Shown one piece after another: positions 7,403 through 33,774 of a DNA stretch of 35,231 nucleotides. A program made the position numbers and the translations under genes. The first letter of the stretch is position 1; the number at the start of each line of letters is the position of its first letter. The stretch is taken from positions 1 to 35,231 of the forward strand of contig CAKTWI010000024.1 in the NCBI GenBank assembly GCA_934630815.1. Direction: 5' to 3'. This DNA is from an uncultured Senegalimassilia sp. GTDB lineage: Bacteria; Actinomycetota; Coriobacteriia; Coriobacteriales; Eggerthellaceae. Under the pieces are notes generated by a model, which worked only from the letters and a program-made list of their open reading frames with translations, had not been told where the DNA came from and made no database searches.

Positions 7403-7414
7403 CCGTGCACGAGA

Positions 7415-7506
7415 GATGCTCCCTACGCCAGCGTTACCTGGACAGGTTCAAAGGGTTAGGCTTGCGCCCTCTCAGCGCCGACGTTGCCGCCGGGCACCCC
7501 TGCATC
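7415..7506 (-). ncRNA. TPP riboswitch (THI element)
   Basis: Minus-strand sequence contains the conserved GGGGTGCCC, CTGAGAGGG, ACCCTTTGAACCTG and GCCAGCGTAGGGA segments in order. They are closed by a P1 stem GATGC (7506-7502) with GCATC (7419-7415). These are the known core elements of the thiamine pyrophosphate aptamer. It lies directly upstream of thiM and its terminator. Confidence 0.96.
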
Positions 7507-7673
7507 GAATCTGTTGAGCATATAGTACACCGGCGCGTAAACCGCTTGCCCGTTAAACCGCCGAACGGACAAAGGAATCGCACGAGCCAAGAGACCGGCG
7601 TTACCGCGCGCCCTTTGCGCGCCCGACCGCCGAACGGATACGGCAAAAACCAAAGACAGCGGAACCCTTCACC

Positions 7674-17855: not shown

Positions 17856-19580
17856 CTACTCAGCTCGATTTCCCGCAAGGAAATCGAGCAGTTCTTGCCT
17901 GGAGTGCACATCAAGCTTTGAGTAAATGGCCCTCAGGTGCGTGCGCACGGTGTTCTTCGAGATGGTCAGATGCTCGGCGATCCAGTTCGCGCTGCGGCCT
18001 TGGGCGAACAGGTCGAGGATCTCCAGCTCGCGAGCGGAAAGACCGTACACGGGGTTCGACGGATCGCACGATGCGGAAGCATCTTGCCCATCGTACACGC
18101 CAGCCAAGGGCGCACCATCGCCATCCTGCGAAAGAGGGCCGTGCATACCCCGCGTCACAGCGCTGCCAGCTGCAGCATCGCCGCCCCCGACCGAAGCCGT
18201 CACCTCCTTACGAGGCGCGGCCCCTGAAGCGCCGGAAACCGATGCCCCGCCGGCCACCGAACCATTCGCCACCGTCGGAGCCGCCGCGCAAGCCCGACAT
18301 GCGGCGCAAGCATCCGCCGAACGCGCACGCGCCGCCGCCTCGCTGTCCACCGAACGGGCCATGATCCGCTTCAAATCGTTCTCCGGGAACACATACACCA
18401 GCACAAGCACCACCAGAAACGCAAGCGCCATGCCCACGCCCATGCGCACAATGCCGTCCACATAATATGGTTGCAGAAAACCGCCAACGGCCCACCCTGC
18501 GAGCGAGGCGACGAAGTACACGCCCTGACCGATGCCGAACACCCGCACGGCAGAGAAATCATAACGAAACGCCATGTATGCCATAAAGCAGGAGAACACC
18601 ATCCAAAGGCACTCCTTGCCCACCGACAAGAACGCGACATCGAAGCCGAAGCAGGAAAGCAGCATCATAGCGATACCGAGGACGATCAAGCCCGAATACA
18701 CCCTGCGTGCGCCGCGCACCGTATCCCCATGATTGACCACCGCAACGATGACGATGGCAAGCAGACCCACGCAAAACACGATGAGGGTGCCTGAGCGCGC
18801 GAACACATCGGCATTGCCGATCATCGACGTGATGCCCTTGCCCACGCCTGCGGTGAACGCGACCAAAGCCGAAGCAGCCACTAACTTGCGATACATGTGC
18901 CGCTCAGGAGACCGGCGCGCCATGAGCTCGCCTTCGGTCGGCGCAGCGGAGGGAAACGGATCGGCATCGCCCATGGTAAGCAGCAAAGTCGACACGATCG
19001 GCAATGCCGCGATGAACAGAAGCCTGAGCTCGGGCGGGATGCCGACGCCGACGTAATACAGAAACGCCGCGAGCAAAAGGGAGATACCGCCGGCGGTGAG
19101 CGAATCGCCCAACGAGATGGAACCGTAGATGCACCCTGCCTTCAAGCACAGCACGGACGTGCCCACGCCCGTGAGCAATGCGGCGATCACGAAAAACGGG
19201 CCGCCGCCCATAACCACGGAATAGCCGAGCAAAACGGTGAACAGCGAGGCCGTGCACGCACCGGCGATCACGAACGCCCGTCGCTCGAGAAGGCTGGTGA
19301 CCTGCCGCCACATCGCCGCAGCGGCGAACATGCTGCAGGCGATTCCCGCAGTTGAGAGCAGGTACATCTGCAACACGAACGGCGTTTGGTCGCCGGTTGG
19401 GAACATGCGCATGATCTCGGTGGAGTTGTAGCACAGCCAGATCCAAGCCCACCACGCGCCGAAACCCAGGAAACGCAGGTACGCCCATTGCTCGGCGATG
19501 GGCGTAGGCGCAGCAGGACCGCCCTTCACGCCTCGTTTGCCCATATCCGGCCCCACAGGCTTCTCAACGGTATCCCCCAT
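17856..19580 (-). CDS. Membrane-bound LuxR-family transcriptional regulator with MFS-like sensor half
   Basis: A 574-residue protein. Residues about 20-400 hold about 12 membrane helices resembling an MFS fold (for example FLGFGAWWAWIWLCYNSTE, ISLLLAAFLYYVGVG, MALAFLVVLVLVYVF). A long Ala/Gly/Ser-rich linker (about 415-510) follows, including a cysteine cluster CAACRAC. The C-terminal LuxR helix-turn-helix contains LSARELEILDLFAQGRSANW and TISKNTVRTHLRAIYSKLDV. Such proteins are abundant in Eggerthellaceae and sit beside reductase genes they are thought to control. The start at 19580 has AAGGGGGGA; an in-frame TTG at 19610 is less likely. It lies downstream of the reductase operon on the same strand, behind a terminator, so it probably has its own promoter. 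Ligand unknown. Confidence 0.9.
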   Translation of the reverse strand: MGDTVEKPVGPDMGKRGVKGGPAAPTPIAEQWAYLRFLGFGAWWAWIWLCYNSTEIMRMFPTGDQTPFVLQMYLLSTAGIACSMFAAAAMWRQVTSLLERRAFVIAGACTASLFTVLLGYSVVMGGGPFFVIAALLTGVGTSVLCLKAGCIYGSISLGDSLTAGGISLLLAAFLYYVGVGIPPELRLLFIAALPIVSTLLLTMGDADPFPSAAPTEGELMARRSPERHMYRKLVAASALVAFTAGVGKGITSMIGNADVFARSGTLIVFCVGLLAIVIVAVVNHGDTVRGARRVYSGLIVLGIAMMLLSCFGFDVAFLSVGKECLWMVFSCFMAYMAFRYDFSAVRVFGIGQGVYFVASLAGWAVGGFLQPYYVDGIVRMGVGMALAFLVVLVLVYVFPENDLKRIMARSVDSEAAARARSADACAACRACAAAPTVANGSVAGGASVSGASGAAPRKEVTASVGGGDAAAGSAVTRGMHGPLSQDGDGAPLAGVYDGQDASASCDPSNPVYGLSARELEILDLFAQGRSANWIAEHLTISKNTVRTHLRAIYSKLDVHSRQELLDFLAGNRAE

Positions 19581-19648
19581 GATCCCCCCTTGGTAAAAGC
19601 CCCTCCCCAACGGGACTTTGTCGTCAATTCAGCCCGATGGTATCACAT

Positions 19649-19658
19649 GACCCGGGTC
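19649..19658. promoter_or_regulatory. Short palindrome upstream of the LuxR-type regulator
   Basis: GACCCGGGTC is a perfect 10-bp palindrome about 70 nt upstream of the regulator start, just after the operon terminator. It could be an operator, but the sequence is short and may occur by chance in GC-rich DNA. Confidence 0.2.
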
Positions 19659-19659
19659 G

Positions 19660-19702
19660 TAAAGCAAAGCGGGCGCCTGGGCTTGTTACCCAAACGCCCG
19701 CT
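19660..19702 (-). terminator. Terminator of the molybdenum reductase operon
   Basis: AGCGGGCG (19668-19675) pairs with CGCCCGCT (19695-19702), with an inner TGGG/CCCA helix. TTTGCTTTAC follows on the minus strand. It lies 22 nt after the NapH-like stop codon. Confidence 0.85.
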
Positions 19703-19724
19703 AACGCGTACAGCCAAGCCGCCC

Positions 19725-20624
19725 CTACTTGAACTCGATCGACGCCGTGGGGCAGCGTTTCGCGCACTCGCCGCAACGCGTGCACATGCCCAGCTGGGCG
19801 GAAACATCCGAAGCGTGCAGATCGATATGCTCGGCGCAGGCGACGGTGCAGACATCGCACGCCACCCCCTTCGAGGCGCGCAAGCACGTATCCGCGTTGA
19901 CATGCGGACGGAACCTTACGGCGAACCGCCCGAATATGCCGAGCAGGCCCGCCACCGGGCACACGTTCATGCACCACTTGCGGCACAAGACCAGCTCGAC
20001 AGCGAGCGCGATGGGAAACACGAGCACCGAAGCGGTCATCTGCTTATCGACGATGAGATGCCACAACGAAGCGACGCTGCCGAACGTAAGCCCTATCGGG
20101 CACACAAGGCAGAACAACGGAAGACCGGCGACAAGGGCGCACACGAGCACCGCAACCAACACCCAGGTGCGGCTATCCTTCGCGATGCCGCGCAGGTTTT
20201 CCTTTAGATCGAACGCGGACGCAACTCCCGCGCAAGACGCGCAACCGCCCTCGCAGCCCTGATCGCTCAAACTGGCCGGCTTGGGATCTCGCTTAAAAAA
20301 ACGCCTGATCACCGGCGCCGGGCAGCCCCACGCGCACCATGCGCGCCCGAATAGGAGCGAAAACACCAGCACCACACCGGCTGAAATAGCCGCGATCGGG
20401 ATGAACAACTTCGCCGTGAACATGGCCTCAAGGCCGCCGAGCGGGCACAGCAGGTTAAACTGTCCGATGCCGAACGACGAGGGCGTGCCCAAGCCGCAAT
20501 CGAACGCCAACGATGCCAGCACCGCGACGAGCACCGCCGTCAGGGTCACGCGACGGGCGAGCACCATGCGACGGCCCTGCGCACGGCCGCGGCCCTGCGC
20601 CGTTTCCTTTTCCTCCATACCCAT
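19725..20624 (-). CDS. NapH/CcoG-like membrane 4Fe-4S protein
   Basis: A 299-residue inner-membrane protein with about four helices that probably takes electrons from quinol and passes them to the NapG-like partner. It shows the NapH-type cysteine motifs CAWGCPAP (about residue 97), CLVCPIG and CMNVCPVAG next to helices. At the C-terminus are two 4Fe-4S sites: an irregular one (CDVCTVAC with an upstream Cys) and a standard CTRCGECAKRCP. An extra cysteine group GCEGGCASC lies in the loop after the first motif. The start at 20624 immediately follows the TAG stop of the NapG-like gene with no gap, so translation is coupled. It is the last gene of the operon. Confidence 0.85.
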   Translation of the reverse strand: MGMEEKETAQGRGRAQGRRMVLARRVTLTAVLVAVLASLAFDCGLGTPSSFGIGQFNLLCPLGGLEAMFTAKLFIPIAAISAGVVLVFSLLFGRAWCAWGCPAPVIRRFFKRDPKPASLSDQGCEGGCASCAGVASAFDLKENLRGIAKDSRTWVLVAVLVCALVAGLPLFCLVCPIGLTFGSVASLWHLIVDKQMTASVLVFPIALAVELVLCRKWCMNVCPVAGLLGIFGRFAVRFRPHVNADTCLRASKGVACDVCTVACAEHIDLHASDVSAQLGMCTRCGECAKRCPTASIEFK

Positions 20625-21245
20625 CTATGCCTCGACCCCCTTGGCCATCTGCCTTGCCGTCGCCACGCGGATCCCGCGCTCATCGCCGCCGGAAAACGAC
20701 GTGTTGACGTTCGCCGGGCAGATTCGCACGCATTCTCCGCATCCGTTGCATTTCGAATCGTCCACGACGGGACGTCGCTCGTCGTCGAACGAAAGCGCGC
20801 CATACGGGCAGGCATCCACGCAAATGCCGCATGAGCCGGGCGTCGCAAACGCCAGACAACGCTCGGGCAATACCTGCGCGCCGCCGATGCGACCCTTTTC
20901 GGGCGCATACGGATCGACGCTGCCGATGGCCTCGGTCGGGCACACCTGCCGGCACAGATCGCAGAACGTGCAGCTGCCGGCGCGGAAATCAAGCGCCGGG
21001 GTTCGCACGGCCAGCACGCCGGCCTTGATGCCAAGCGGGTACAACACATCGGTCGGGCACACGCTGATGCAGCGGTCGCATCGTATGCAGCGCGCCATGA
21101 ACTCGGCCTCGTCGGCCGCGCCGGGCGGGCGCAGCGTATCGCAAGAAGCCGCACAAGGACGGGCCGCAGCGCCGATGCCGGCGCCCACGGCGAGCGCAGC
21201 CGCGCCGAGAACGAACGCGCGGCGGCTCGGATTCGCTGGTTTCAT
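20625..21245 (-). CDS. NapG-like Tat-exported ferredoxin with four 4Fe-4S clusters
   Basis: A 206-residue electron carrier expected on the outer face of the membrane. The N-terminus NPSRRAFVLG plus an Ala/Gly-rich hydrophobic stretch is a twin-arginine signal. Four cysteine sets follow: CIRCDRCISVCP (about 53-64), CTFCDLCRQVCP, CGICVDACP (first Cys a little upstream) and CNGCGECVRICP near the C-terminus. This matches NapG/MauM-type proteins that accept electrons from NapH. The start at 21245 is chosen because the Tat signal begins there and AAAGGGG precedes it; an in-frame start at 21308 lies inside torD. It is placed 11 nt after the TorD-like gene and directly abuts the NapH-like gene. Confidence 0.88.
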   Translation of the reverse strand: MKPANPSRRAFVLGAAALAVGAGIGAAARPCAASCDTLRPPGAADEAEFMARCIRCDRCISVCPTDVLYPLGIKAGVLAVRTPALDFRAGSCTFCDLCRQVCPTEAIGSVDPYAPEKGRIGGAQVLPERCLAFATPGSCGICVDACPYGALSFDDERRPVVDDSKCNGCGECVRICPANVNTSFSGGDERGIRVATARQMAKGVEA

Positions 21246-21256
21246 AGCACACCCCT

Positions 21257-21961
21257 TTACGCAGCGAGCAGCGGCAATTCGTCCGACACGCAGGTCAGCG
21301 CATCGCACGCCTGCTCAAGCGCGCCTTGGCACACCTTCAGCATGCCCGTATAGAACGTGGTCTTCGCATACTCTTCCGCCGCTTCCTGAAGCTGCCCAAT
21401 CCAATTGAGCAGATGCTGCTCAATGAAACGGCGCTGACGCTTCACGTTCTTGATGGCGTCCAGATTCTGCCCATCGCGGATCAGAGCCGCAGCCTTCGCG
21501 TTCATATGCGCCAGATACTCCAACTCGAAGGAAATGTGGTCCTCCGGCTCATGCAGGTCGGGGTTGACCTTGAATCCATCTTGGATGAACCAATCGATCA
21601 CCTCATCGCGCGTGCCGCCCATCATGATGTGATCCTCGCTGGTGAACACGCTCTCGTAGGGCACAGCAGAGCGCCTCTCCTGAGAGAACACGCCTGCCGC
21701 CAGGAAGATGCGCGCGTACTCCACGGCAAGCTGGCTGCGGCGATCGCCTGCGCTGAACTTGAAATACCGGCGCAGAAGGTTGTAGCCGCGGTCGAGCGCC
21801 TCGTTACCGGTATTCTCGGGCCACTGACCCCCTGCCAGCTCGGCGATGGCCTCCTCGGTCAGCTCCTTGTAAAACACCTGGGAAAGGAACGTGAACGTGT
21901 CGACGTTCGCATCCAGGAACTCAAGCATCTCCTCGGTGGTGGTTTTCTCGTCCTCGGTCAT
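21257..21961 (-). CDS. TorD/DmsD family cytoplasmic chaperone
   Basis: A 234-residue all-helical protein that should bind the Tat signal of the molybdopterin subunit and hold it until the cofactor is inserted. Typical segments are FLSQVFYKELTEEAIAEL near the N-terminus, VEYARIFLAAG, AVPYESVF and the family motif EPEDHISFELEYLAHM (about residues 140-155). The start at 21961 follows AAAGGGGGA; an in-frame TTG at 21982 is less likely. It lies 11 nt before the NapG-like gene, but 245 nt after the DmsC-like gene, and that gap holds two large hairpins. Confidence 0.9.
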   Translation of the reverse strand: MTEDEKTTTEEMLEFLDANVDTFTFLSQVFYKELTEEAIAELAGGQWPENTGNEALDRGYNLLRRYFKFSAGDRRSQLAVEYARIFLAAGVFSQERRSAVPYESVFTSEDHIMMGGTRDEVIDWFIQDGFKVNPDLHEPEDHISFELEYLAHMNAKAAALIRDGQNLDAIKNVKRQRRFIEQHLLNWIGQLQEAAEEYAKTTFYTGMLKVCQGALEQACDALTCVSDELPLLAA

Positions 21962-22014
21962 GCTTCCCCCTTTTTCACTCAAACGGATAAATAACCATGC
22001 TCGTCCATGGTCCT

Positions 22015-22052
22015 ACCTGCGAAGCTTTACGAACGAGTAAAGACTCGCAGGT
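22015..22052. other. Stem-loop in the dmsC-torD gap
   Basis: ACCTGCGA (22015-22022) pairs with TCGCAGGT (22045-22052). After a 2-nt mismatch, CTTTAC pairs with GTAAAG around a 6-nt loop. There is no T-run after it on the minus strand, so it is not a standard terminator. Confidence 0.65.
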
Positions 22053-22073
22053 CAAACCAACGTCGGCGAGGGT

Positions 22074-22166
22074 GCTCGCAGCGCCCCAGGTCGTAGGGAA
22101 CGCGAAGGTGGGCGTACTTGCGATACGCGACCTTTCGAGTTCCCGCAAAGTCGGGGCGCCGCGAGC
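22074..22166. repeat. 93-nt nested palindrome (large structured hairpin)
   Basis: Pairs from outside in: GCTCGC (22074-22079) with GCGAGC (22161-22166); GCGCCCC (22081-22087) with GGGGCGC (22153-22159); an 8/8-nt internal loop; GGGAAC (22096-22101) with GTTCCC (22139-22144); CGAAGGT (22103-22109) with ACCTTTCG (22130-22137, one bulge); GCGTA (22112-22116) with TACGC (22124-22128), 7-nt loop. No coding signal. Confidence 0.8.
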
Positions 22167-22206
22167 GGTTGCAGCGTCGAATAGCGCTTTCGCCGTCAGG
22201 CTGAAG

Positions 22207-23028
22207 CTAGTCGAGCGGCTGCAGGAAGAAATCGAGCAGCGGGGTGCCCACAAGCCACATCGCCACACGCAGAGCGATGGCGCAGACCGCGCCCGCTGCG
22301 GTTGCCGCAACGCCGGCCGCGGTCGCAGACTCGGTCTTCTTCACGGCAAGCGCACCGGCGACAAGCGCGATGACGATGCACGCGAACGTGGCGGCGATCC
22401 ATGCGGTGCAGCCGGGCTTAGCGTTGCCCAGCCATGCGCCGGCGTAGACGAAGAACGCGATGGAGCACACAGCGGCTACTGCAGAGCAGGCGACCGTCAG
22501 CACGCCCGCAAAGCTCACGGATGCGTCCTCATCCTTCGCAACGGCCTTGAGCAGTAGGTTCAAACCCGCGCCGGCAACGGCGGCCGTGGCCCAGTAGGAC
22601 AGAGGCAAGGCAATGGTCATCCACGCCTGACGAGCCTCCATCATGTAGGAGTAACCGCACATGAACGGGAAGATGATGGCGATGACCATCGTCACGACGC
22701 CGACGATCCTCGTGCCGGATTCGCCGGACTTGCGCACGAGCATGACCAGGTAGATCAGCGCCAGCACGATCAGCACGCCGATAAGGGCGGCCTCGACGAA
22801 AATACCGGACGTGGGATGGTTGAGCGCCTCGAAGATGCGATCGATGTGCTTAAGGTGCGTTACCGAGGCGACGCCGCCAACGGCCAGAAGCACGATCGCC
22901 ACAATCGTCTCGACCTTCGTGGGCAACGGGCTTTTCTTCGCCAGGGCGCCCATCATGGACGTCGCGAACAGCCAGGCGCCCGCACCGCTGATGACGGTGA
23001 ACAAAACCAGGGACCATTGGGCTTCCAT
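22207..23028 (-). CDS. DmsC-like membrane anchor of a molybdopterin reductase
   Basis: A 273-residue, eight-helix inner-membrane protein that anchors the catalytic pair and oxidises menaquinol. The N-terminus WSLVLFTVISGAGAWLF and the following helix pair with HLKHIDRIFEALNHPTSG match DmsC (first helix and the His/Arg region near the quinol site). The rest is hydrophobic and rich in Ala and Val, with YMMEARQAW in a loop. The start at 23028 overlaps the DmsB stop by one base (TAATG), so the two are translationally coupled. It is the third gene after the catalytic subunit, in the usual A-B-C order. Confidence 0.88.
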   Translation of the reverse strand: MEAQWSLVLFTVISGAGAWLFATSMMGALAKKSPLPTKVETIVAIVLLAVGGVASVTHLKHIDRIFEALNHPTSGIFVEAALIGVLIVLALIYLVMLVRKSGESGTRIVGVVTMVIAIIFPFMCGYSYMMEARQAWMTIALPLSYWATAAVAGAGLNLLLKAVAKDEDASVSFAGVLTVACSAVAAVCSIAFFVYAGAWLGNAKPGCTAWIAATFACIVIALVAGALAVKKTESATAAGVAATAAGAVCAIALRVAMWLVGTPLLDFFLQPLD

Positions 23029-23669
23029 TAGTCGACGCTCCCTTCAGTGGTCATGTACTTCGACGTGGTCTGATGCACGTCCTCCCCTGCCCACTTCGCG
23101 ATCTTCGGGGAAAGGATGTAGGCAGAGATGGGGCCGTTGCCCACGTCGGGCAGATGATGGATGGATTCGGCCGGATACTTCGCCAGCTCTTTCGAGACGT
23201 CGGAGTTCGGGTCGTCCAGATCGCCGTAGAAACGCGCCGTGCCGCAGCAGTTCTTCACGCACGCGGGCTTCTCGCCGGCGCTGGTCAGATGGCTGCACAT
23301 GGTGCACTTCTCGACGACCTTCTGCTCCTTGTTCCAGGAACGCACGCCGTAAGGGCACGCCATCATGCAGTAACGGCAGCCTATGCACTTCGACTTGTCG
23401 ACGAGCACCTTGCCCGTCTCCTCATCGCGATAGCTGGCGCCGGTCGGGCACACGTGCACGCACGGGGCGCCTTCGCACTGCTGGCACTGCACGGGAAGCC
23501 AATACGTCTGCACATCGGGGAACACGCCGGCGGGCTCGATTTGCAGCACCTTGTTCCAGCGCTCGCCCATCGCGATATCGTTCTCCATCTTGCACGCCAC
23601 CTCGCAGCTGTAGCAGCCGATGCAGCGATCAAGGTTCACTACCAAGCAATTACGCGCCATAAACGGCAT
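23028..23669 (-). CDS. DmsB-like electron-transfer subunit, four 4Fe-4S clusters
   Basis: A 213-residue iron-sulfur protein that carries electrons from the membrane anchor to the molybdopterin subunit. Cysteine sets: CIGCYSCEVACK (about 15-26), CQQCEGAPCVHVCP, CIGCRYCMMACP and CTMCSHL with a later CVKNC, as in DmsB/NrfC/PhsB proteins. No signal peptide is seen; it is expected to ride out with the Tat-bearing catalytic subunit. Its start at 23669 has GGAGGGGG 5 nt upstream and overlaps the end of the catalytic gene by 20 nt; a start at 23660 is also possible. The longer open frame to 23825 is a shadow. Confidence 0.92.
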   Translation of the reverse strand: MPFMARNCLVVNLDRCIGCYSCEVACKMENDIAMGERWNKVLQIEPAGVFPDVQTYWLPVQCQQCEGAPCVHVCPTGASYRDEETGKVLVDKSKCIGCRYCMMACPYGVRSWNKEQKVVEKCTMCSHLTSAGEKPACVKNCCGTARFYGDLDDPNSDVSKELAKYPAESIHHLPDVGNGPISAYILSPKIAKWAGEDVHQTTSKYMTTEGSVD

Positions 23670-26457
23670 TACCCCCTCCGGTGTTCTCGGATTCCTGCGG
23701 CATCCATGCAGTGAACTGCTCGGGCTCGGTCCAGATGCCCTCAGGTGCGCTATCGGCCTTCTTGATGTTGATCTGGACGCCGCGCAGCACATAGGTGCCA
23801 TACACGTCGTTGAACGGGCAATCATCGCTGTTCTGCGTAAGCAGGTTGATGTTCATGGCCTGCCATGCGCGGTTCGGGTCCTTCGAATCGAGCAGCTCGG
23901 GGAACCAGAAGCGCTCCTGGTAGATGACCTTCGGGGCCACCGACTTGGTGATGCGTGCCTTGCCCTGCGTCTTGCCGCGCTTCGACTCCAGCCACAGCCA
24001 ATCCCCGTCCTCGACGCCGATCTCCTTGGCCGTTTCCGGGTTGATCCACGTCTCGGGATACGGATACAGCTCGCGGGTGTAGGGCGTGTTGCGCAGCGTG
24101 CCGTGATGGAATACCGGCAGACGGCCCTGCGTCAACGTGTAGGGATAGTTCGCGTCGTAACCCGGGTCGCCTTCCACGGGGCTCTCGTAGGGCTCCAGGT
24201 AATACGGCAGCGGGTTGTAGTTGTTCGACTTCGGGAACACGTCGGTGGCGGGCTCCATGGAGCCGGTGCCGTCGATGGCGCCCGTGTTGCCCAGCAAGAT
24301 GTTGCCGTCGAAGTACGGTTCGCAACGCTTAGAGGTCGTATGGAAGCCGGCGGGCTTGGTCGGATCGTCGCCATCGGGGAACAGATGGCTGTTGTACGAC
24401 TTCGCCGCATACTCCTCGATGGTCTGGTACTCGGAAGGCGCCTGAGCGTCGAACTTCTCCCAGTTCCAATCCTCGCGGTCGTAGTAGAAGCTGCCCACGA
24501 AGTAGCCGACGTAGTCCTTGTACTCCTCGTAGGTCTTCCAATACGTGCCGTAGAACTTGCCGGCGATATCGGGATTGAACGAGTCGATGCAGCGCTGATG
24601 GCCGCGCTTGGCAAGAGCTGCCGCAAGCCAAGACCAGTGCATGCACTCGTCGACGGCCTCGTAGAGCTGCGTGCAGGGGCGACGGATGGCATAAGTGTTC
24701 AGGCGGTCCTGAGCGTAGGCCGTCTCAAGCCATTCCGCCGTCGGGAGCACATAGTCGGCCAGGCACACGCTCGTGGTGGTCCAATGCATGTACATATGGA
24801 CATTGAGCTCGGTGGTCATCATGGCATCGTAGAGTCGCTTGGCGTTGCCGATCATCACCAGCTTGTTGCCGGAACGCTCGATCCAGATGCGCGGACGATA
24901 CGGCTCGCCCGTCTCGATGGCCTTGAGGACCGTCGGGATGTGGCTGGCAAGCCAGTGCCCCAGGCCCTTATGCTCGGTGTAGCCCAAGCGCGCGTTGGCC
25001 TCGGATTCGGGCATGCGCAGCGGGTGGTCGGGATGATGCAGGCCGAACGGCTGCACGACGTAGTTGCACGGCTCGACGTAGCACGGGCGGTCCTGCACGA
25101 TGGAGCCGGGCTGGCGGATGCAGCCCATCAGGATGTCCATGATGGCGTCGCCCTGCGCCGCCTGCGCCGAGTTGATGGCCTGGTCGGTGGCCACGCCCAG
25201 CGAGATGCCGGCGTTCGGGCAGCCTTCCACGTAGATCTTGATGGCCTTCTCGATCTTGTCGGCGTCAAGCCAGCAGACCTCCGCGGCCTTCTCCAGCGTC
25301 CACTCGGCCACGTGCTCCTTCATGATCTGGAACGCCGTGCGGGCCTTTTCGCCGTTGGGAAGCGTGTAGGTGCCGAACATCTCCGGGTCGATGGAGCCGT
25401 CGGAGGGGAACGGGTACGGCATGGCCACAGCAGCGTTGGTCTTCTTGTCCCACACCACGTACTCGTCCTCGCCGCCTAATCCCAGCTCGCTTGCGCGATA
25501 GGTCAGGCGCGTGTCCTCATGGACCAGGAAAGGCAGGTTGGTCCACTCGCGACAGAAGTCCTTCGCCCACAGGTCGTGCTCGATGATGTAGTTGATCCAG
25601 CACAGCATGAGCGCAACGTCGGTACCCGGTCGGATGGGCAGCCACACGTCGGCCTTTGCGGCGTCGGGCGTCAGACGCGGGTCGATGACCACGGTCTTCA
25701 TGCCGTTGTTACGCAGCTCGGTCACCACGCGGCCCGTGGAGCCGATGCCGTGATACGAAGGGCCGACGCCCCACATGACGTAGCTCTTGGTGGGCGTGCA
25801 CTTGTCATCGGGCAGGTAACCGGGCAGGTACACCTCGGTGACCGGGCCATCGGCCAGCGACGTGTCGGCCGTGCCGTTCAGGCAGAACTCCATGTGGTTA
25901 CGCGGCAGATAGCACTGGGCGCAGCCGGGCTCGAAGAAGTTGCCGCCGCCCCACACGGAAAGGAAGCGCGCCGGGCTGAAGAACTGCGGGTTGCCGCCGC
26001 CGCCCGTGGAGGTGACCAGGCACTTCGGGCCCTCCTTCTGATACCACTCCCACATAACCTCGGAGATCTCGTCCATGGCCTGGCCCCAGGAGATGCGCTC
26101 CCACTCGTTGGAACCGCGCTCGCCCTTGCGCTTCATGGGGTACTTGATGCGGTTGGGGTTGTACAGCGCCTGGATGCCGGCAAGGCCCTTAGCGCACGCC
26201 GCACCCTTGTTCATCGGGTCCTCCGGGTCGCCTTCAAGCTTGACCACCTTGCCGTCGCGCACGTGCGCGACCATGCCGCAGTTGTTCAAGCAGGCGCGGC
26301 AGATCGTGCGGATCTTCTGCGTCTCCCCCGTGGTGGCCGCCATAGCCGGCTTGACCTGCATGAGGTTCTGCGTCGTGGCGCTTGCCATGGCCACAGCGGC
26401 GCCGGCGAACGCGGACAGCTTCACGAAGCCGCGGCGGCTGATGCTCGTCTTAGCCAA
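23650..26457 (-). CDS. Molybdopterin-dependent oxidoreductase catalytic subunit, DMSO reductase superfamily
   Basis: A 935-residue Tat-exported enzyme with a bis-molybdopterin cofactor. The N-terminus AKTSISRRGFVKLSAF is a twin-arginine signal. The proximal 4Fe-4S site is CRACLNNC with a later GAACAKG (Cys 53, 56, 60, 88). Then come TSTGGGGNP, and GCAQCYLPRNH (Cys 179 and 182), where the Mo ligand is expected in this superfamily; a cysteine ligand is thus likely, unlike the serine of true DMSO reductase. The C-terminal molybdopterin-binding domain starts at about YTLTQGRLPVFHH. The start is probably TTG at 26457, since AGGAAGGG lies 6 nt upstream and the Tat signal begins there; ATGs at 26496 and 26541 would precede it. 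Substrate unknown: acetylene-hydratase-like or catechol-dehydroxylase-like enzymes are candidates, on motif resemblance only. Confidence 0.92.
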   Translation of the reverse strand: MAKTSISRRGFVKLSAFAGAAVAMASATTQNLMQVKPAMAATTGETQKIRTICRACLNNCGMVAHVRDGKVVKLEGDPEDPMNKGAACAKGLAGIQALYNPNRIKYPMKRKGERGSNEWERISWGQAMDEISEVMWEWYQKEGPKCLVTSTGGGGNPQFFSPARFLSVWGGGNFFEPGCAQCYLPRNHMEFCLNGTADTSLADGPVTEVYLPGYLPDDKCTPTKSYVMWGVGPSYHGIGSTGRVVTELRNNGMKTVVIDPRLTPDAAKADVWLPIRPGTDVALMLCWINYIIEHDLWAKDFCREWTNLPFLVHEDTRLTYRASELGLGGEDEYVVWDKKTNAAVAMPYPFPSDGSIDPEMFGTYTLPNGEKARTAFQIMKEHVAEWTLEKAAEVCWLDADKIEKAIKIYVEGCPNAGISLGVATDQAINSAQAAQGDAIMDILMGCIRQPGSIVQDRPCYVEPCNYVVQPFGLHHPDHPLRMPESEANARLGYTEHKGLGHWLASHIPTVLKAIETGEPYRPRIWIERSGNKLVMIGNAKRLYDAMMTTELNVHMYMHWTTTSVCLADYVLPTAEWLETAYAQDRLNTYAIRRPCTQLYEAVDECMHWSWLAAALAKRGHQRCIDSFNPDIAGKFYGTYWKTYEEYKDYVGYFVGSFYYDREDWNWEKFDAQAPSEYQTIEEYAAKSYNSHLFPDGDDPTKPAGFHTTSKRCEPYFDGNILLGNTGAIDGTGSMEPATDVFPKSNNYNPLPYYLEPYESPVEGDPGYDANYPYTLTQGRLPVFHHGTLRNTPYTRELYPYPETWINPETAKEIGVEDGDWLWLESKRGKTQGKARITKSVAPKVIYQERFWFPELLDSKDPNRAWQAMNINLLTQNSDDCPFNDVYGTYVLRGVQINIKKADSAPEGIWTEPEQFTAWMPQESENTGGGNAVYGA

Positions 26458-26541
26458 AACACACCCTTCCTTTCCTTTTCTCACTCGTTTACTCATCCTT
26501 GCTTCAAGCGGCCGCGTGGCCGCGGAAAGCCTTAACTGCAT

Positions 26542-26721
26542 CTTGGAAGCCGTTGCACGGAGCGCGGCGCCGCCGGCCTAAAACGAGGCGACGGATGCGT
26601 GAGGATCTATCCTGCTGAAAATGAAGGGAGGGGGAGGATTCAGCAGGACGTGCAAGGGAGGAGGGTTCGTCGCATGGACGCTGCGCGCCGTGCGACGGCT
26701 TCCGAGATACGGGGCAGGCGA
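26542..26721 (-). other. Leader region before the molybdopterin subunit, with two hairpins
   Basis: CCTGCTGAA (26611-26619) pairs with TTCAGCAGG (26639-26647), the loop being almost all pyrimidine on the minus strand. CGTCGCA (26668-26674) pairs with TGCGACG (26691-26697). Neither is followed by a T-run. They may stabilise, attenuate or process the transcript between the winged-helix gene and the catalytic gene. Confidence 0.5.
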
Positions 26722-27318
26722 TTATGCGATCGCGCGAAGGCCTGCCTCGGTTGCACGCCATGCGCCATCCCAAACGATGCCGCCGGCGGTCTCGAGCGCA
26801 TCCATGAAGTACTGCGGATAGACGCGCTTGCCATCCGGCGAAACGACGTTGCCGTCCTGCTCGACCGCCTGCTCGACCGCATCGCGGCTCGCGCCGTCGG
26901 AAGCGGCGCAAACGGAGATCACGCGGGCGAACACGTCGCGATAATGCGGGCGGTCGGCCAGCAGGGCGCGCATGGTGAAATCAGGGTCGAGCGAAGCCGC
27001 CAGATCGCGGCCCGTTTGCGTGATGGAAATGCCGTCGGAGACTTCGGCCTCGAGCGGAACGGATTCGTCGCGCTGGATGTCCTCGAGCGTACCGTTATAA
27101 ATCTTGCCGTCGACGACGATCTGCTCGGCAAGCGCGCCGTTGCGCAAAAGCGATTCGATGATGGTGGCGGGAGCTTGCGAGTAGGATTCGCGCCACACCT
27201 GAGCAAGCTGCTCCTCAAGCTGCGCACGGTCGAACGTTTCAGCTTCGGCATACATGCCCAGCACGCAGGCAACGGGCTCCTTAAGCCGCGGATTGTGCTC
27301 TACCAGATCGATTGCCAT
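26722..27318 (-). CDS. Tandem winged-helix-like protein of unknown function, head of the reductase operon
   Basis: A 198-residue cytoplasmic protein without signal or membrane segments that I do not recognise as a named family. Its pattern suggests two winged-helix units. The first (about 8-108) has RAQLEEQLAQVW, ATIIESLLRNGAL and a wing-like GISITQTGRDLA. The second (about 118-198) has RDVFARVISVCAASDGASRDA, then PQYFMDALETAGGI and WDGAWRATEAGLRAI, with the typical helix then beta-wing ending in TEAG. The start at 27318 follows AAAGGGGGA. It lies 264 nt upstream of the molybdopterin gene on the same strand. It could be a regulator, or a maturation factor analogous to TorD; the sequence does not decide. 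Confidence 0.7.
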   Translation of the reverse strand: MAIDLVEHNPRLKEPVACVLGMYAEAETFDRAQLEEQLAQVWRESYSQAPATIIESLLRNGALAEQIVVDGKIYNGTLEDIQRDESVPLEAEVSDGISITQTGRDLAASLDPDFTMRALLADRPHYRDVFARVISVCAASDGASRDAVEQAVEQDGNVVSPDGKRVYPQYFMDALETAGGIVWDGAWRATEAGLRAIA

Positions 27319-27639: not shown

Positions 27640-27680
27640 CAAGAAAAGCCCGCCCGAGCAACAGCTCGAGCGGGCTTTGA
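27639..27680 (-). terminator. Terminator of lysS
   Basis: AAAGCCCGC and CGAGC (27645-27659) pair with GCTCG and GCGGGCTTT (27664-27678) around a 4-nt loop. TTTTCTTGTTTC follows on the minus strand. It lies 36 nt after the lysS stop. Confidence 0.9.
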
Positions 27681-31001: not shown

Positions 31002-32174
31002 CTACCGCTTGAAATTCGACAAGATTCCCAGTCTGGCCTGGGGTTTCGGCAAATAGATGAAACGCGGTTCGAAGTCGAACAGCTCGGCGGTGCGCACCTG
31101 CGGACTTACCGTGATGCACTTCTTCATGCACGCATCCACGCACAGGCCGCATTGCACGCACTCGGCGCAGGAGAATTCCAGGAAGCTGCCGCCGTCGGGC
31201 GTGCCGTCGGCGTTGGGGCTGGGTTTGATGGAGCTTTTTGCAAGCGCACCCGTAGGGCAGAACACCGCGCACATGCCGCATGAGTTGCACACGGAAGCGT
31301 CGATCTCCACCCTGCCGAACAGGCGCGTCTCGACCTGCTCGACCTCAGGCTCGCCCAAACGGTCCATGGCATCGAGCACCTGGCTGCGGCGCCGCTCCTG
31401 GAACTGGGGCAGCGTGCCCGATGCGCCCGCCCCCAGCTGTTCGCGAAGCGTGGCTTCCTTTGCCTGCATCCCCAGGTTTTTGCGGATAACCATCTCGGCG
31501 GTCTTGCCCGCCGCGCTGGCCGTCCATGAGGTTGCGCTGGTAAAGAAGCCGCGGCGCGCCTCGCCGAGCAGGCTGTTCGCGTTCTTGAGCGCAAGCCCTT
31601 CTGGGAACTCCGACGCGCGGGAGACCATTGCCGGCGCCCCCTGCGCCTGCATCAGGTTGTTGGCGGAAGCGATGGTTTCGTCCACGCCGGGCGAGGTCGC
31701 CCTGAACCTGCACGTCTTGCAGCACCCGTCCACCAACACGATGTCCTTGGCGCCGACCGCCGCCAAGCTGAGCAGCAGGCTTTCGTCGACGCGCGCCAGG
31801 CAGGGCACTTCGGCGAACTTGTGCGGGTCGGCCAGGCCCTTCGACGCGATGCGGGCGCAGGCGACGACCGCGCGCCCATCAAGGGCGGCCATAGCCTCTG
31901 CCGCCGCCCGCTCAAGCGACTCGTCGGCAGGGCGAACGGGGATCAAGGCCTCGGTGGGGCAAACCACCGTGCAGGCCCCGCACGCCACGCAAGCCTTGTG
32001 ATCGACGCTGAGCACGTTGTTGTGCACGCTGATGGCATCGGCCGGGCAGGCATCGATGCACTTGCGGCATGAAGCGTTGCGGTTTCGCACGGCCACGCAG
32101 CGTTTCGAAGCTGCCACGACGGCCTTGTCCTCAAGTTCCTCGGCCACTTCTATGATGTCTGCGATGTTCGGCAT
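31002..32174 (-). CDS. Four-cluster 4Fe-4S ferredoxin with a central MvhD-like domain
   Basis: A 390-residue cytoplasmic electron carrier. The N-terminal ferredoxin pair is CRKCIDACP (with upstream Cys26) and CVACGACTVVCP (about 36-75). A central domain (about 95-170) with VVACARIASKG, EVPCLARVDESLLLSLAAVG and VLVDGCCKTCRF resembles the hydrogenase delta subunit (MvhD/FlpD) fold. A helical stretch follows, then a second ferredoxin pair CNSCGMCAVFCPTGAL and CAECVQCGLCVDACMKKC (about 290-355). The start at 32174 follows GGGGAAGG. No hydrogenase or heterodisulfide reductase partner is nearby. The neighbour upstream is mobBA, so it may supply electrons to a molybdoenzyme or its maturation; this is an inference. 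Confidence 0.8.
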   Translation of the reverse strand: MPNIADIIEVAEELEDKAVVAASKRCVAVRNRNASCRKCIDACPADAISVHNNVLSVDHKACVACGACTVVCPTEALIPVRPADESLERAAAEAMAALDGRAVVACARIASKGLADPHKFAEVPCLARVDESLLLSLAAVGAKDIVLVDGCCKTCRFRATSPGVDETIASANNLMQAQGAPAMVSRASEFPEGLALKNANSLLGEARRGFFTSATSWTASAAGKTAEMVIRKNLGMQAKEATLREQLGAGASGTLPQFQERRRSQVLDAMDRLGEPEVEQVETRLFGRVEIDASVCNSCGMCAVFCPTGALAKSSIKPSPNADGTPDGGSFLEFSCAECVQCGLCVDACMKKCITVSPQVRTAELFDFEPRFIYLPKPQARLGILSNFKR

Positions 32175-32249
32175 TCGCCTTCCCCCTCATTTACTCCCAC
32201 GCGTATATGCCGCGGCGAAGATTAGCGTACGATCGCTGCGCGCGACGGG

Positions 32250-32271
32250 TTCGCATCATAATCTGTGCGAA
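32250..32271. promoter_or_regulatory. Inverted repeat in the leader of the ferredoxin gene
   Basis: TTCGCA (32250-32255) and TGCGAA (32266-32271) with a 10-bp centre that contains, on the minus strand, TATGAT, a possible -10. It lies about 75 nt upstream of the ferredoxin start and could be an operator. Confidence 0.35.
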
Positions 32272-32307
32272 ATCGGCGCGGGTCGGACGCGGGCGCTTCA
32301 CATGGCG

Positions 32308-33651
32308 CTACTCGCACTCGATGCGCTCCTGCACGATGCGCTCGAGCGCCGCCAGCTCGTCGGGCGTGTTCGCGTTCATGAAGCACCCGCCCATAGGCTC
32401 GGCCTCAAGCACCTTCTTTTGCGGAAACTCGCACACGTTGACCTGGTTGAAGAACACCTGAGCGCGCTTCTCCCCTTCATTGAGCGCCTCGCGCACGGCC
32501 GGCAAGCAGCCCGAGCGGCGGTAGATCGCGTGAAACGGCTCGAAGCCATGCTTGTTGACGGGCACCACCACATCAGCCCCCGTCCTGGTCATCTCGAGCG
32601 CTTCGGCGACCACGAGCGACGGCGACGCGAGCACCATGTCGCAGGCCACAACGGCCACGTAGGGGTTGCGGGCGCAGCGAAGGGCCGTGTAAAGGCCCGG
32701 CAGCGCGCCGCGCTCGTTGATGACGTCGGACTCGAAGCGGATACCCAGTTCGGGATACTGCTCTTGCAGAAACGCAAGCTCCTCCGGCTCATTGGTGGTG
32801 ATGATGAGCTCGTCGGCCACCGGCGAGAGCCTCTCGACCAAACGGCAGATGAGCGGCCGGCCGCAGAACGGGACCGTTGCCTTGCTGCGACCCATGCGGC
32901 GGCTCTCGCCGCCGGCCTGGATGACCATAGACACGCGCGGGCGAGCGAAGCTCACCTGCAGAAAATCCGCCAACCCTGCCACATCGTTGATATCGAACGC
33001 CGGGATGCCGTATATGCCGGCGGCTTCAGCAGCCAGCGGGATGTCGGTGACCACCGCGACCGTTGCGGCCGTGGGCATCTTGTTGGAGATGTCGGCATGG
33101 TCGGGATAGCTGCGCGCGAGGCGGTCCTCCTCGACCTGGTCCAAAGGCTGCGCCACGGGATGATCATCGGGGTAGACATCGGCCGCATAAGGCACGGAAC
33201 CGCGTCCGAACTGGGTGAAATCCGTGCCGAGCGCCCATCCCTTGCGAGCACCCTCGGCGAACACCTCGGCGGTTCGGGCATCGGCCTTGTTGCCGGCGCG
33301 CATGATCTCGATGGTGGGCAGGCCGCTTTTGCGATAACCCTCGACGATCACCACGTCGTGGCCGGGCATGCTCGCCACGATGTCGGCGCATTCCGCTTCC
33401 CCATCGGTGGTTTGGATACGCGCCATCTGGCCCGGTGCCGCGATAACCGTCTCGCTGGCGCCGGCGTGGCGATGCCGCCACGAGTCTTTCCCGGGAATGT
33501 CGATATCGAACCCGACATGGCTGTGGTGCTTGACGCTGCCAACGTCCAGACCACGGCCGACCAGCTCGGCGATGAGCTTCTCGATAAGGGTTGTCTTGCC
33601 GGAATTATGACGCCCGACGATGGAGACCGCGGGGCTGGGAAACTTGATCAT
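32308..33651 (-). CDS. MobB-MobA fusion, molybdopterin-guanine dinucleotide biosynthesis
   Basis: A 447-residue cytoplasmic protein. The N-terminal half (about 1-215) is MobB, a P-loop GTPase with VGRHNSGKTTLIEKL near residues 11-25, VKHHSHVGFDID and VVIVEGYRKSGLPTIEI. The C-terminal half (about 228-447) is MobA, the guanylyltransferase that adds GMP to molybdopterin, with IQAGGESRRMGRSKA and NERGALPGLYTALR, the VVACDMVLAS Asp that binds metal, and VPVNKHGFEPFHAIY. Together they make the bis-MGD cofactor needed by DMSO reductase-type enzymes such as the one at 23650. The start at 33651 follows AAAGGA; an ATG at 33657 is too close to it. A TATACT at 33680-33675 (minus strand) may be its -10. 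Confidence 0.92.
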   Translation of the reverse strand: MIKFPSPAVSIVGRHNSGKTTLIEKLIAELVGRGLDVGSVKHHSHVGFDIDIPGKDSWRHRHAGASETVIAAPGQMARIQTTDGEAECADIVASMPGHDVVIVEGYRKSGLPTIEIMRAGNKADARTAEVFAEGARKGWALGTDFTQFGRGSVPYAADVYPDDHPVAQPLDQVEEDRLARSYPDHADISNKMPTAATVAVVTDIPLAAEAAGIYGIPAFDINDVAGLADFLQVSFARPRVSMVIQAGGESRRMGRSKATVPFCGRPLICRLVERLSPVADELIITTNEPEELAFLQEQYPELGIRFESDVINERGALPGLYTALRCARNPYVAVVACDMVLASPSLVVAEALEMTRTGADVVVPVNKHGFEPFHAIYRRSGCLPAVREALNEGEKRAQVFFNQVNVCEFPQKKVLEAEPMGGCFMNANTPDELAALERIVQERIECE

Positions 33652-33774
33652 GCGCATATCCTTTCGTGCGAAAAAGTATAGCACGCGCCCTTCCGGCGCA
33701 GGTCCCGCGACCACGACCAGCCCAGGCGTTCCATGCGCTCCGTCTAAGGAAGTGCTTATGATTGATAGAATTTA

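What the first reader, a model, noticed from the sequence alone, without database searches (positions are those of the whole stretch)
17856..27318. Molybdenum reductase operon with two quinol modules, a LuxR-MFS sensor and a winged-helix head gene
The order winged-helix gene, catalytic subunit, DmsB-type, DmsC-type, TorD, NapG-type, NapH-type, LuxR-MFS is a complete respiratory unit. DmsABC normally works alone, and NapGH normally serves nitrate reductase or related enzymes. Having both in one transcription unit suggests two electron entry routes, or that NapGH serves a partner elsewhere. The catalytic subunit has cysteines at the expected Mo-ligand site, so it is unlikely to be a plain DMSO reductase.
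Basis: partly seen in the sequence, partly recalled or inferred. Interest (0 to 1): 0.75.

Follow-up and report, generated by a model that had tools for sequence, protein, structure and literature searches.

The report
Gut respiratory reductase operon, uncharacterised branch
These genes build an exported molybdenum enzyme that gut Coriobacteria probably use to breathe an unknown compound, wired like the known gut enzymes that strip hydroxyl groups from dopamine and plant polyphenols but belonging to a separate, untested branch.

Summary
The eight genes are real and in the stated order. The catalytic subunit is not a DMSO or TMAO reductase: it sits in a fully supported third branch of the acetylene hydratase / catechol dehydroxylase group, about 25-31% identical to the dopamine, hydrocaffeate and DOPAC dehydroxylases, with cysteine at the Mo-ligand position. 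DmsABC plus NapGH is not new: E. lenta dadh and hcdh clusters carry the same parts, and published dadh deletions (PMC11887054) found the NapG- and NapH-like genes indispensable, the DmsC-like gene dispensable. The 'winged-helix' gene matches DadhE, needed for activity but apparently not expression: more likely a maturation factor than a regulator. The LuxR lies behind a terminator and moves between relatives, but its sensor part follows the enzyme. Apparently new is a module swap: in 60 of 80 scorable relatives DmsC+NapG+NapH were all present (27) or all absent (33), never mixed. Of the 33, 31 are Bacillota, mostly without detected menaquinone genes or a Tat motif, and 27 of 33 sit beside AsrA/AsrB. 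Some paralogues in quinone-makers also lack the module. Substrate unknown; a hydroxylated aromatic is my guess.

The parts
26722..27318 (-). DadhE-like protein with winged-helix fold (198 aa), probable enzyme-specific maturation factor
23650..26457 (-). catalytic bis-MGD molybdenum subunit, 935 aa, Tat motif (SRRGF)
26194..26301 (-). N-terminal 4Fe-4S cluster cysteines (residues 53, 56, 60, 88 of 935)
   Evidence: invariant in the 44-sequence alignment
25912..25914 (-). Cys182, proposed Mo ligand, in GCAQCYLPR
   Evidence: aligns with Cys/Sec of NapA, FdnG, acetylene hydratase, Dadh, Hcdh, Dodh; Ser in DmsA/YnfE; invariant in 44 sequences
23028..23669 (-). DmsB-type 4Fe-4S subunit, 213 aa
   Evidence: 45% to DadhB, 46% to HcdhB
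22207..23028 (-). DmsC-type membrane anchor, 273 aa
   Evidence: Pfam DmsC 62.6 bits; 7 hydrophobic segments on a rough scale
21962..22206 (-). structured DmsC-TorD intergenic stretch (no function shown)
   Evidence: RNA MFE -112 kcal/mol, z -5.2, 0 of 200 shuffles; z below -5 in 5 of 9 loci tested
21257..21961 (-). TorD-type chaperone (DadhF homologue)
   Evidence: Pfam 94.9 bits; 32% to DadhF
20625..21245 (-). NapG-type protein, Tat-like RR signal, four 4Fe-4S motifs (DadhG homologue)
   Evidence: 36% over 201 aa to DadhG, E 5e-39
19725..20624 (-). NapH-type membrane quinol dehydrogenase subunit with CX3CP motifs (DadhH homologue)
   Evidence: 41% over 174 aa to a DadhH piece, 34% over 315 aa to the Hcdh-cluster protein
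19668..19702 (-). terminator-like hairpin, 15 pairs, between NapH and LuxR
17856..19580 (-). transmembrane LuxR-type regulator (DadR kind)
   Evidence: GerE 61.3 bits; sensor part 42-73% identical beside 7 of 8 orthologues, mostly 31% or less to others
27645..27678 (-). terminator-like hairpin after lysS, probable upstream border of the operon
31002..32174 (-). DadhI-like Fe-S protein, outside the operon
   Evidence: 34% over 387 aa to DadhI, E 1e-58; 35% to the Cadh-cluster accessory
32308..33714 (-). MobB-MobA fusion (molybdopterin guanine dinucleotide synthesis), outside the operon
   Evidence: Pfam MobB 127.5 bits, NTP_transf_3 114.3 bits

Best explanation
The operon encodes an exported (Tat-dependent) molybdenum reductase of an uncharacterised third branch of the acetylene hydratase / catechol dehydroxylase group. 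The WH (DadhE-like) and TorD proteins mature the catalytic subunit. Menaquinol is oxidised at the membrane by NapH, assisted or scaffolded by DmsC. Electrons pass by the Fe-S clusters of NapG and the DmsB-type subunit to bis-MGD molybdenum held by Cys182, where an organic acceptor is reduced. The transmembrane LuxR senses that acceptor and switches the operon on. DmsC+NapGH act as one supply module rather than two alternative entries. The acceptor is unknown; a hydroxylated aromatic (catechol or pyrogallol type) is the best guess, at about 0.4. Shown by sequence: gene content, relatedness, Tat motif, ligand alignment, co-occurrence. Inferred: electron path, role of DmsC, substrate class, induction.
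For: Three-branch tree with full support for this branch and 99/99 for the joint group (FastTree). Cys at the ligand position. Gene-for-gene match to the E. lenta dadh and hcdh clusters, plus a DadhI homologue and MobBA upstream. Published deletions in the dadh cluster: dadhB, dadR and dadhD-H indispensable, dadhC dispensable; Dadh protein still detected in most inactive strains except the dadR and dadhD deletions (PMC11887054 section 5). DmsC+NapG+NapH all present in 27, all absent in 33, mixed in 0 of the 60 of 80 loci with enough flank. MenD above cut-off or MqnA found in 15 of 19 genomes with the module and 2 of 33 without (Fisher 9e-8, which ignores shared ancestry). AsrA/AsrB, NAD(P)H-linked by family, lie near the enzyme in 27 of 33 loci without and 0 of 27 with the module, which argues that the enzyme consumes electrons. 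The LuxR sensor part tracks the enzyme.
Against: No experiment on this branch. The all-or-none pattern rests on only 2 independent changes in the tree of those loci. Paralogues of this branch in E. lenta (L171, no DmsC/NapGH in the 10 kb downstream held) and in A. equolifaciens (L013@2026, none before the next cluster) lack the module although both genomes have menD. Four of 19 module genomes gave neither MenD nor MqnA: two Sutterella (L047, L051) and two MAGs (L016, 1.2 Mb; L063). Two Lactobacillaceae have MenD without the module. In dadh the DmsC-like subunit was dispensable, which fits poorly with its strict linkage here. One of 8 orthologue loci (L006) has nearby LuxRs that are not of the matching kind, on a contig that ends just after DmsC. 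Identity to any characterised dehydroxylase is only about 25-31%.
Confidence: 0.68

Rival explanations
1. Two alternative electron entry routes: DmsC takes electrons from one quinol pool and NapGH from another, both feeding the same enzyme, chosen by redox state.
For: Both modules are present and both are quinol-oxidising by family. In dadh the C subunit was dispensable, so NapGH can suffice there.
Against: If they were redundant, relatives with only one should exist; 0 of 60 scorable loci do. dadhC alone cannot replace dadhG or dadhH.
Confidence: 0.18
2. NapGH serves a partner encoded elsewhere and merely sits in this operon.
For: NapGH-like pairs occur with other enzymes, e.g. at the NapA-like locus of E. 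lenta (L145).
Against: Present with DmsC in all 27 module loci and absent with it in 33; identity to the window falls in step with the catalytic subunit (NapG Spearman 0.80, n=20); cluster-specific need shown for dadh/cadh accessory genes.
Confidence: 0.05
3. A non-redox enzyme (hydratase or transhydroxylase) like acetylene hydratase.
For: The best solved structure by sequence, and first but tied by model, is acetylene hydratase.
Against: Electron-supply genes beside the enzyme: the DmsC+NapGH module in 27 and AsrA/AsrB in 27 of the 60 scorable loci; the other 6 have neither nearby.
Confidence: 0.05
4. An ordinary DMSO/TMAO/selenate-type reductase.
For: DmsB and DmsC-type partners.
Against: Separated from DmsA and YnfE with strong support and from TorA only (TorA is a long branch there); Cys not Ser at the ligand position; NCBIfam DmsA/TorA scores far below cut-offs.
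Confidence: 0.02

Closest known systems
Eggerthella-type catechol dehydroxylase clusters (DadhABC-DEFGH(I)-R, Hcdh, Cadh; PMC11887054, PMC7028382)
   Same: Tat-exported catalytic subunit, DmsB and DmsC partners, DadhE-like, TorD, NapG and NapH types, transmembrane LuxR, DadhI-like protein nearby; Cys at the Mo site
   Different: Catalytic subunit about 27-31% identical over its best pieces and in a different, fully supported branch; accessory genes E-H in one compact operon with A-C; substrate unknown; no helicase domain among the 20 window proteins scanned by Pfam
Gordonibacter-type catechol dehydroxylases (Dodh, Gp Hcdh, Eadh)
   Same: Same larger group; Cys in a similar motif (CYQPR/CYLPR)
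   Different: Those are shorter, lack a signal peptide and a membrane anchor (PMC7028382, PMC11887054, PMC12771579); 25% identity to Dodh over 830 aa
Acetylene hydratase of Pelobacter acetylenicus (2e7z)
   Different: Single non-redox subunit (recalled); groups with the Dodh branch, not with this one
E. coli DmsABC and NapGH
   Same: DmsB, DmsC, NapG and NapH types
   Different: Catalytic subunit not of the DmsA family; NapG 34% and NapH 24% identical to E. coli

Membership tests
Catechol dehydroxylase (Eggerthella type) | Catalytic subunit falls in the Dadh/Hcdh clade | tested here: not met
   Separate clade, 100/100 each, in the 25-row ML tree; also separate in the 79-row FastTree
Catechol dehydroxylase (Eggerthella type) | Tat signal, DmsB and DmsC partners | tested here: met
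   (SRRGF at the catalytic N terminus)
Catechol dehydroxylase (Eggerthella type) | Accessory DadhE, F, G, H homologues in the cluster | tested here: met
Catechol dehydroxylase (Eggerthella type) | Accessory DadhD helicase homologue | not tested
   No search with a DadhD query was made; no helicase domain among the 20 window proteins scanned by Pfam
Catechol dehydroxylase (Eggerthella type) | Removes a hydroxyl from a catechol | not testable with these tools
   needs an assay
Acetylene hydratase / catechol dehydroxylase group | Groups with these enzymes apart from DmsA, NapA, FdnG | tested here: met
   99/99 support for the 20-row group
DMSO/TMAO reductase | Groups with DmsA/YnfE/TorA and has Ser at the Mo position | tested here: not met
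   (TorA only)
NapGH-type quinol dehydrogenase | NapG with RR signal and four 4Fe-4S motifs; NapH with CX3CP motifs and C-terminal 4Fe-4S | tested here: met
NapGH-type quinol dehydrogenase | Curated NapG/NapH score | tested here: not met
   NapG 65.3 of 269, NapH 57.8 of 234 bits: homologous, not an equivalog
10-12-TM LuxR regulators (DadR kind) | C-terminal LuxR HTH behind many TM helices, homologous to DadR | tested here: met
   GerE domain; homologous to DadR, 23% over 424 aa; helix number itself not established, 7 hydrophobic segments on a rough scale
PadR/MarR winged-helix transcription factor (WH gene) | Winged-helix fold | tested here: met
PadR/MarR winged-helix transcription factor (WH gene) | Binds DNA or regulates | not testable with these tools
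   Only the dadR and dadhD deletions are named as losing Dadh expression (PMC11887054), which speaks against regulation by dadhE

The most novel reading that the evidence does not exclude
One molybdenum enzyme lineage runs on two interchangeable power supplies. In most quinone-making hosts sampled it is exported by Tat and fed through an inseparable DmsC+NapG+NapH membrane module (respiration). In quinone-less Bacillota it stays in the cytoplasm and is fed from NAD(P)H by AsrA/AsrB, the electron half of anaerobic sulfite reductase, often with AsrA fused to the enzyme's own TorD chaperone. The window's operon is the respiratory form, reducing an as yet unknown acceptor shared by gut Coriobacteria, acetogens and lactobacilli.
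Probability: 0.55. Interest if true: 0.62.

Novelty: new variant of a known kind. Interest (0 to 1): 0.46.

Why it matters
Catechol dehydroxylases decide how dopamine, drugs and polyphenols are changed in the gut. A third, widely spread branch with no known substrate, found also in Bacillota such as Eubacterium ramulus, E. oxidoreducens and Sporomusa, is an obvious place to look for new gut reactions. The natural swap between a quinol module and an NAD(P)H module makes an open question testable: what DmsC and the NapGH pair each do, and whether the reaction conserves energy. The compact operon should be easier to move into an expression host than the more scattered dadh genes.

Full report
What is there. 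The stretch 17856-27318 holds eight genes on the minus strand in the order stated: a small winged-helix gene, a molybdenum catalytic subunit, DmsB-type, DmsC-type, TorD-type, NapG-type, NapH-type and a transmembrane LuxR. Upstream lie lysS, a tRNA-Pro gene, and further up a DadhI-like Fe-S protein and a MobB-MobA fusion; downstream an AI-2E-type transporter and a Clp-type ATPase (the Clp name is recalled from the sequence). The closest genome found is an Eggerthellaceae MAG (UBA5906, L007), 96% in the catalytic subunit and with the same flanks.

Transcript borders. Terminator-like hairpins of 15 pairs lie after lysS (27678-27645) and between NapH and LuxR (19702-19668). So seven genes, not eight, are likely one unit, and the LuxR is separate. 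In relatives the LuxR lies upstream, downstream, or on the other strand. Its sensor part is 42-73% identical in 7 of the 8 named loci with orthologues of at least 78% (L001-L005, L007, L016); the eighth, L006, has only unlike LuxRs and its contig ends just after DmsC. It is 40-44% in L063 and L067, whose enzymes are 43-45% identical, and mostly 31% or less elsewhere, apart from alignments of few columns.

The two-module question. The combination is already known. In the E. lenta dadh cluster the window's WH, TorD, NapG and NapH proteins have homologues at the positions of DadhE, F, G and H (HMM 185 bits; 32%; 36%; 41% over a piece), and the hcdh cluster has A-B-C-NapG-NapH in a row. In PMC11887054 (section 5 read in full; passages of others) deletion of dadhB, dadR or dadhD-H abolished dopamine dehydroxylation in G. 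[quoted passage not shown] the authors liken DadhG/H to NapG/H by FoldSeek, and AlphaFold3 put DadhE against the catalytic subunit. Thus the 'winged-helix head gene' is most likely a maturation factor. Its model is confident and winged-helix (pLDDT 92.2; PadR/MarR-type matches, though no Foldseek match reached E 0.001), so DNA binding is not excluded.

A module that comes and goes as one. Among 80 loci fetched with the branch's alignment (best 80 of 125), 60 have at least 5.5 kb downstream. 27 have DmsC, NapG and NapH; 33 have none; 0 are mixed. The tree needs only 2 changes: one for 31 Bacillota, one for L011+L078. MenD above cut-off or MqnA was found in 15 of 19 genomes with the module and 2 of 33 without (Fisher p 9e-8, which ignores shared ancestry). 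The two Coriobacteria without the module (L011, an Adlercreutzia isolate, and L078, a MAG) gave neither marker. Against this, further paralogues of the branch in E. lenta (L171) and A. equolifaciens (L013@2026) have WH, enzyme, DmsB, TorD and a LuxR but no module, in genomes with menD; they too are all-absent, not mixed.

The swap. In the Bacillota, AsrA (often fused to TorD) and AsrB stand next to the enzyme, above NCBIfam cut-offs in the three loci scanned (L022, L044, L060). By similarity AsrA and AsrB lie near in 27 of 33 loci without the module and 0 of 27 with it, with TorD-AsrA fusions in 15; a Tat-like motif is present in 27 of 27 with the module and 4 of 33 without. The six without AsrAB are L011, L078, L025, L041, L058 and L062. 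I read this as one enzyme with two exchangeable electron supplies.

Conservation of the gene set. WH lies upstream in 23 of 26 coriobacterial loci and 2 of 44 others with enough flank. NapG and DmsC identity to the window falls in step with the catalytic subunit (Spearman 0.80 and 0.73, n=20; the rows are related, so the p-values flatter). In 138 Eggerthellaceae genomes, 38 hold a match to P0012, the 96% relative, at E<=1e-150, 8 of them with a place at 83% or more. The E. lenta-like genome has two clusters of this branch with DmsC, NapG and NapH, 46% and 49% identical to P0012, one with WH (L152) and one without a WH hit (L139).

What is new and what is not. Known: the cluster type, the LuxR family (PMC9734109 section 13), the large unexplored diversity (PMC11585353 section 7: 121 of 126 clusters without function), and that homologues occur in Clostridium ljungdahlii and Desulfitobacterium (PMC7028382 section 11). 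I cannot say whether this branch is among those clusters. Also seen: PMC7028382 section 9 part 1 and passages, PMC12771579 section 5, PMC9734109 section 27 and passages, PMC11585353 passages, PMC3475470 and PMC12780646 passages. The listings of nine searches of the open library and what I read showed no description of this branch, of the all-or-none DmsC+NapGH pattern, or of the AsrAB partner. That library lacks most subscription papers.

Mechanism and limits. Shown by sequence: content, order, export motif, ligand residue, relatedness, co-occurrence. Inferred from the dadh experiments: need for WH, TorD, NapG and NapH. Inferred only: electron path NapH-NapG-DmsB-Mo, the role of DmsC, sensing by LuxR, and a hydroxylated aromatic acceptor. 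Some hosts outside Coriobacteria are flavonoid or methoxyaromatic users (recalled), which fits an aromatic acceptor but does not show it.

Noticed in passing
window 21962-22206 (-); also L002, L003, L005, L007: The DmsC-TorD gap folds far better than shuffled sequence (z -5.2, -5.6; relatives to -9.5) in 5 of 9 loci, is weaker in L004 and L008, and short and unstructured in L001 and L016. It may be an attenuator, processing site or mobile palindrome.
   Followed up: partly
L168:5700-7900 (G056, taken for E. lenta DSM 2243): dadhH is split by an insertion carrying an IS110-like transposase ORF (name recalled), although dadhH was indispensable for Dadh in G. urolithinfaciens.
   Followed up: partly
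L003/L013 (Adlercreutzia equolifaciens contig, 1318287-1357142): Four members of this enzyme branch lie in a row: the orthologue, a 37% one without the module, a 51% one with it, and the start of another; a hot spot of expansion.
   Followed up: partly
G001-G004, G056: 36 to 85 molybdopterin-family (PF00384) matches per genome in four Eggerthellaceae and 36 in the E. lenta-like genome; some matches are two pieces of one gene.
   Followed up: no
L022, L026, L054, L060 and 11 more: TorD chaperone fused to AsrA, next to AsrB and a mostly Tat-less molybdenum enzyme; the siroheme sulfite reductase subunit AsrC was not searched for.
   Followed up: partly
window 7403-7511 (-): TPP riboswitch (62.3 bits).
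   Followed up: no
window 31002-33714 (-): DadhI-like Fe-S protein and MobB-MobA fusion just upstream of tRNA-Pro and lysS; the DadhI-like gene is also kept in L007 (81%).
   Followed up: partly
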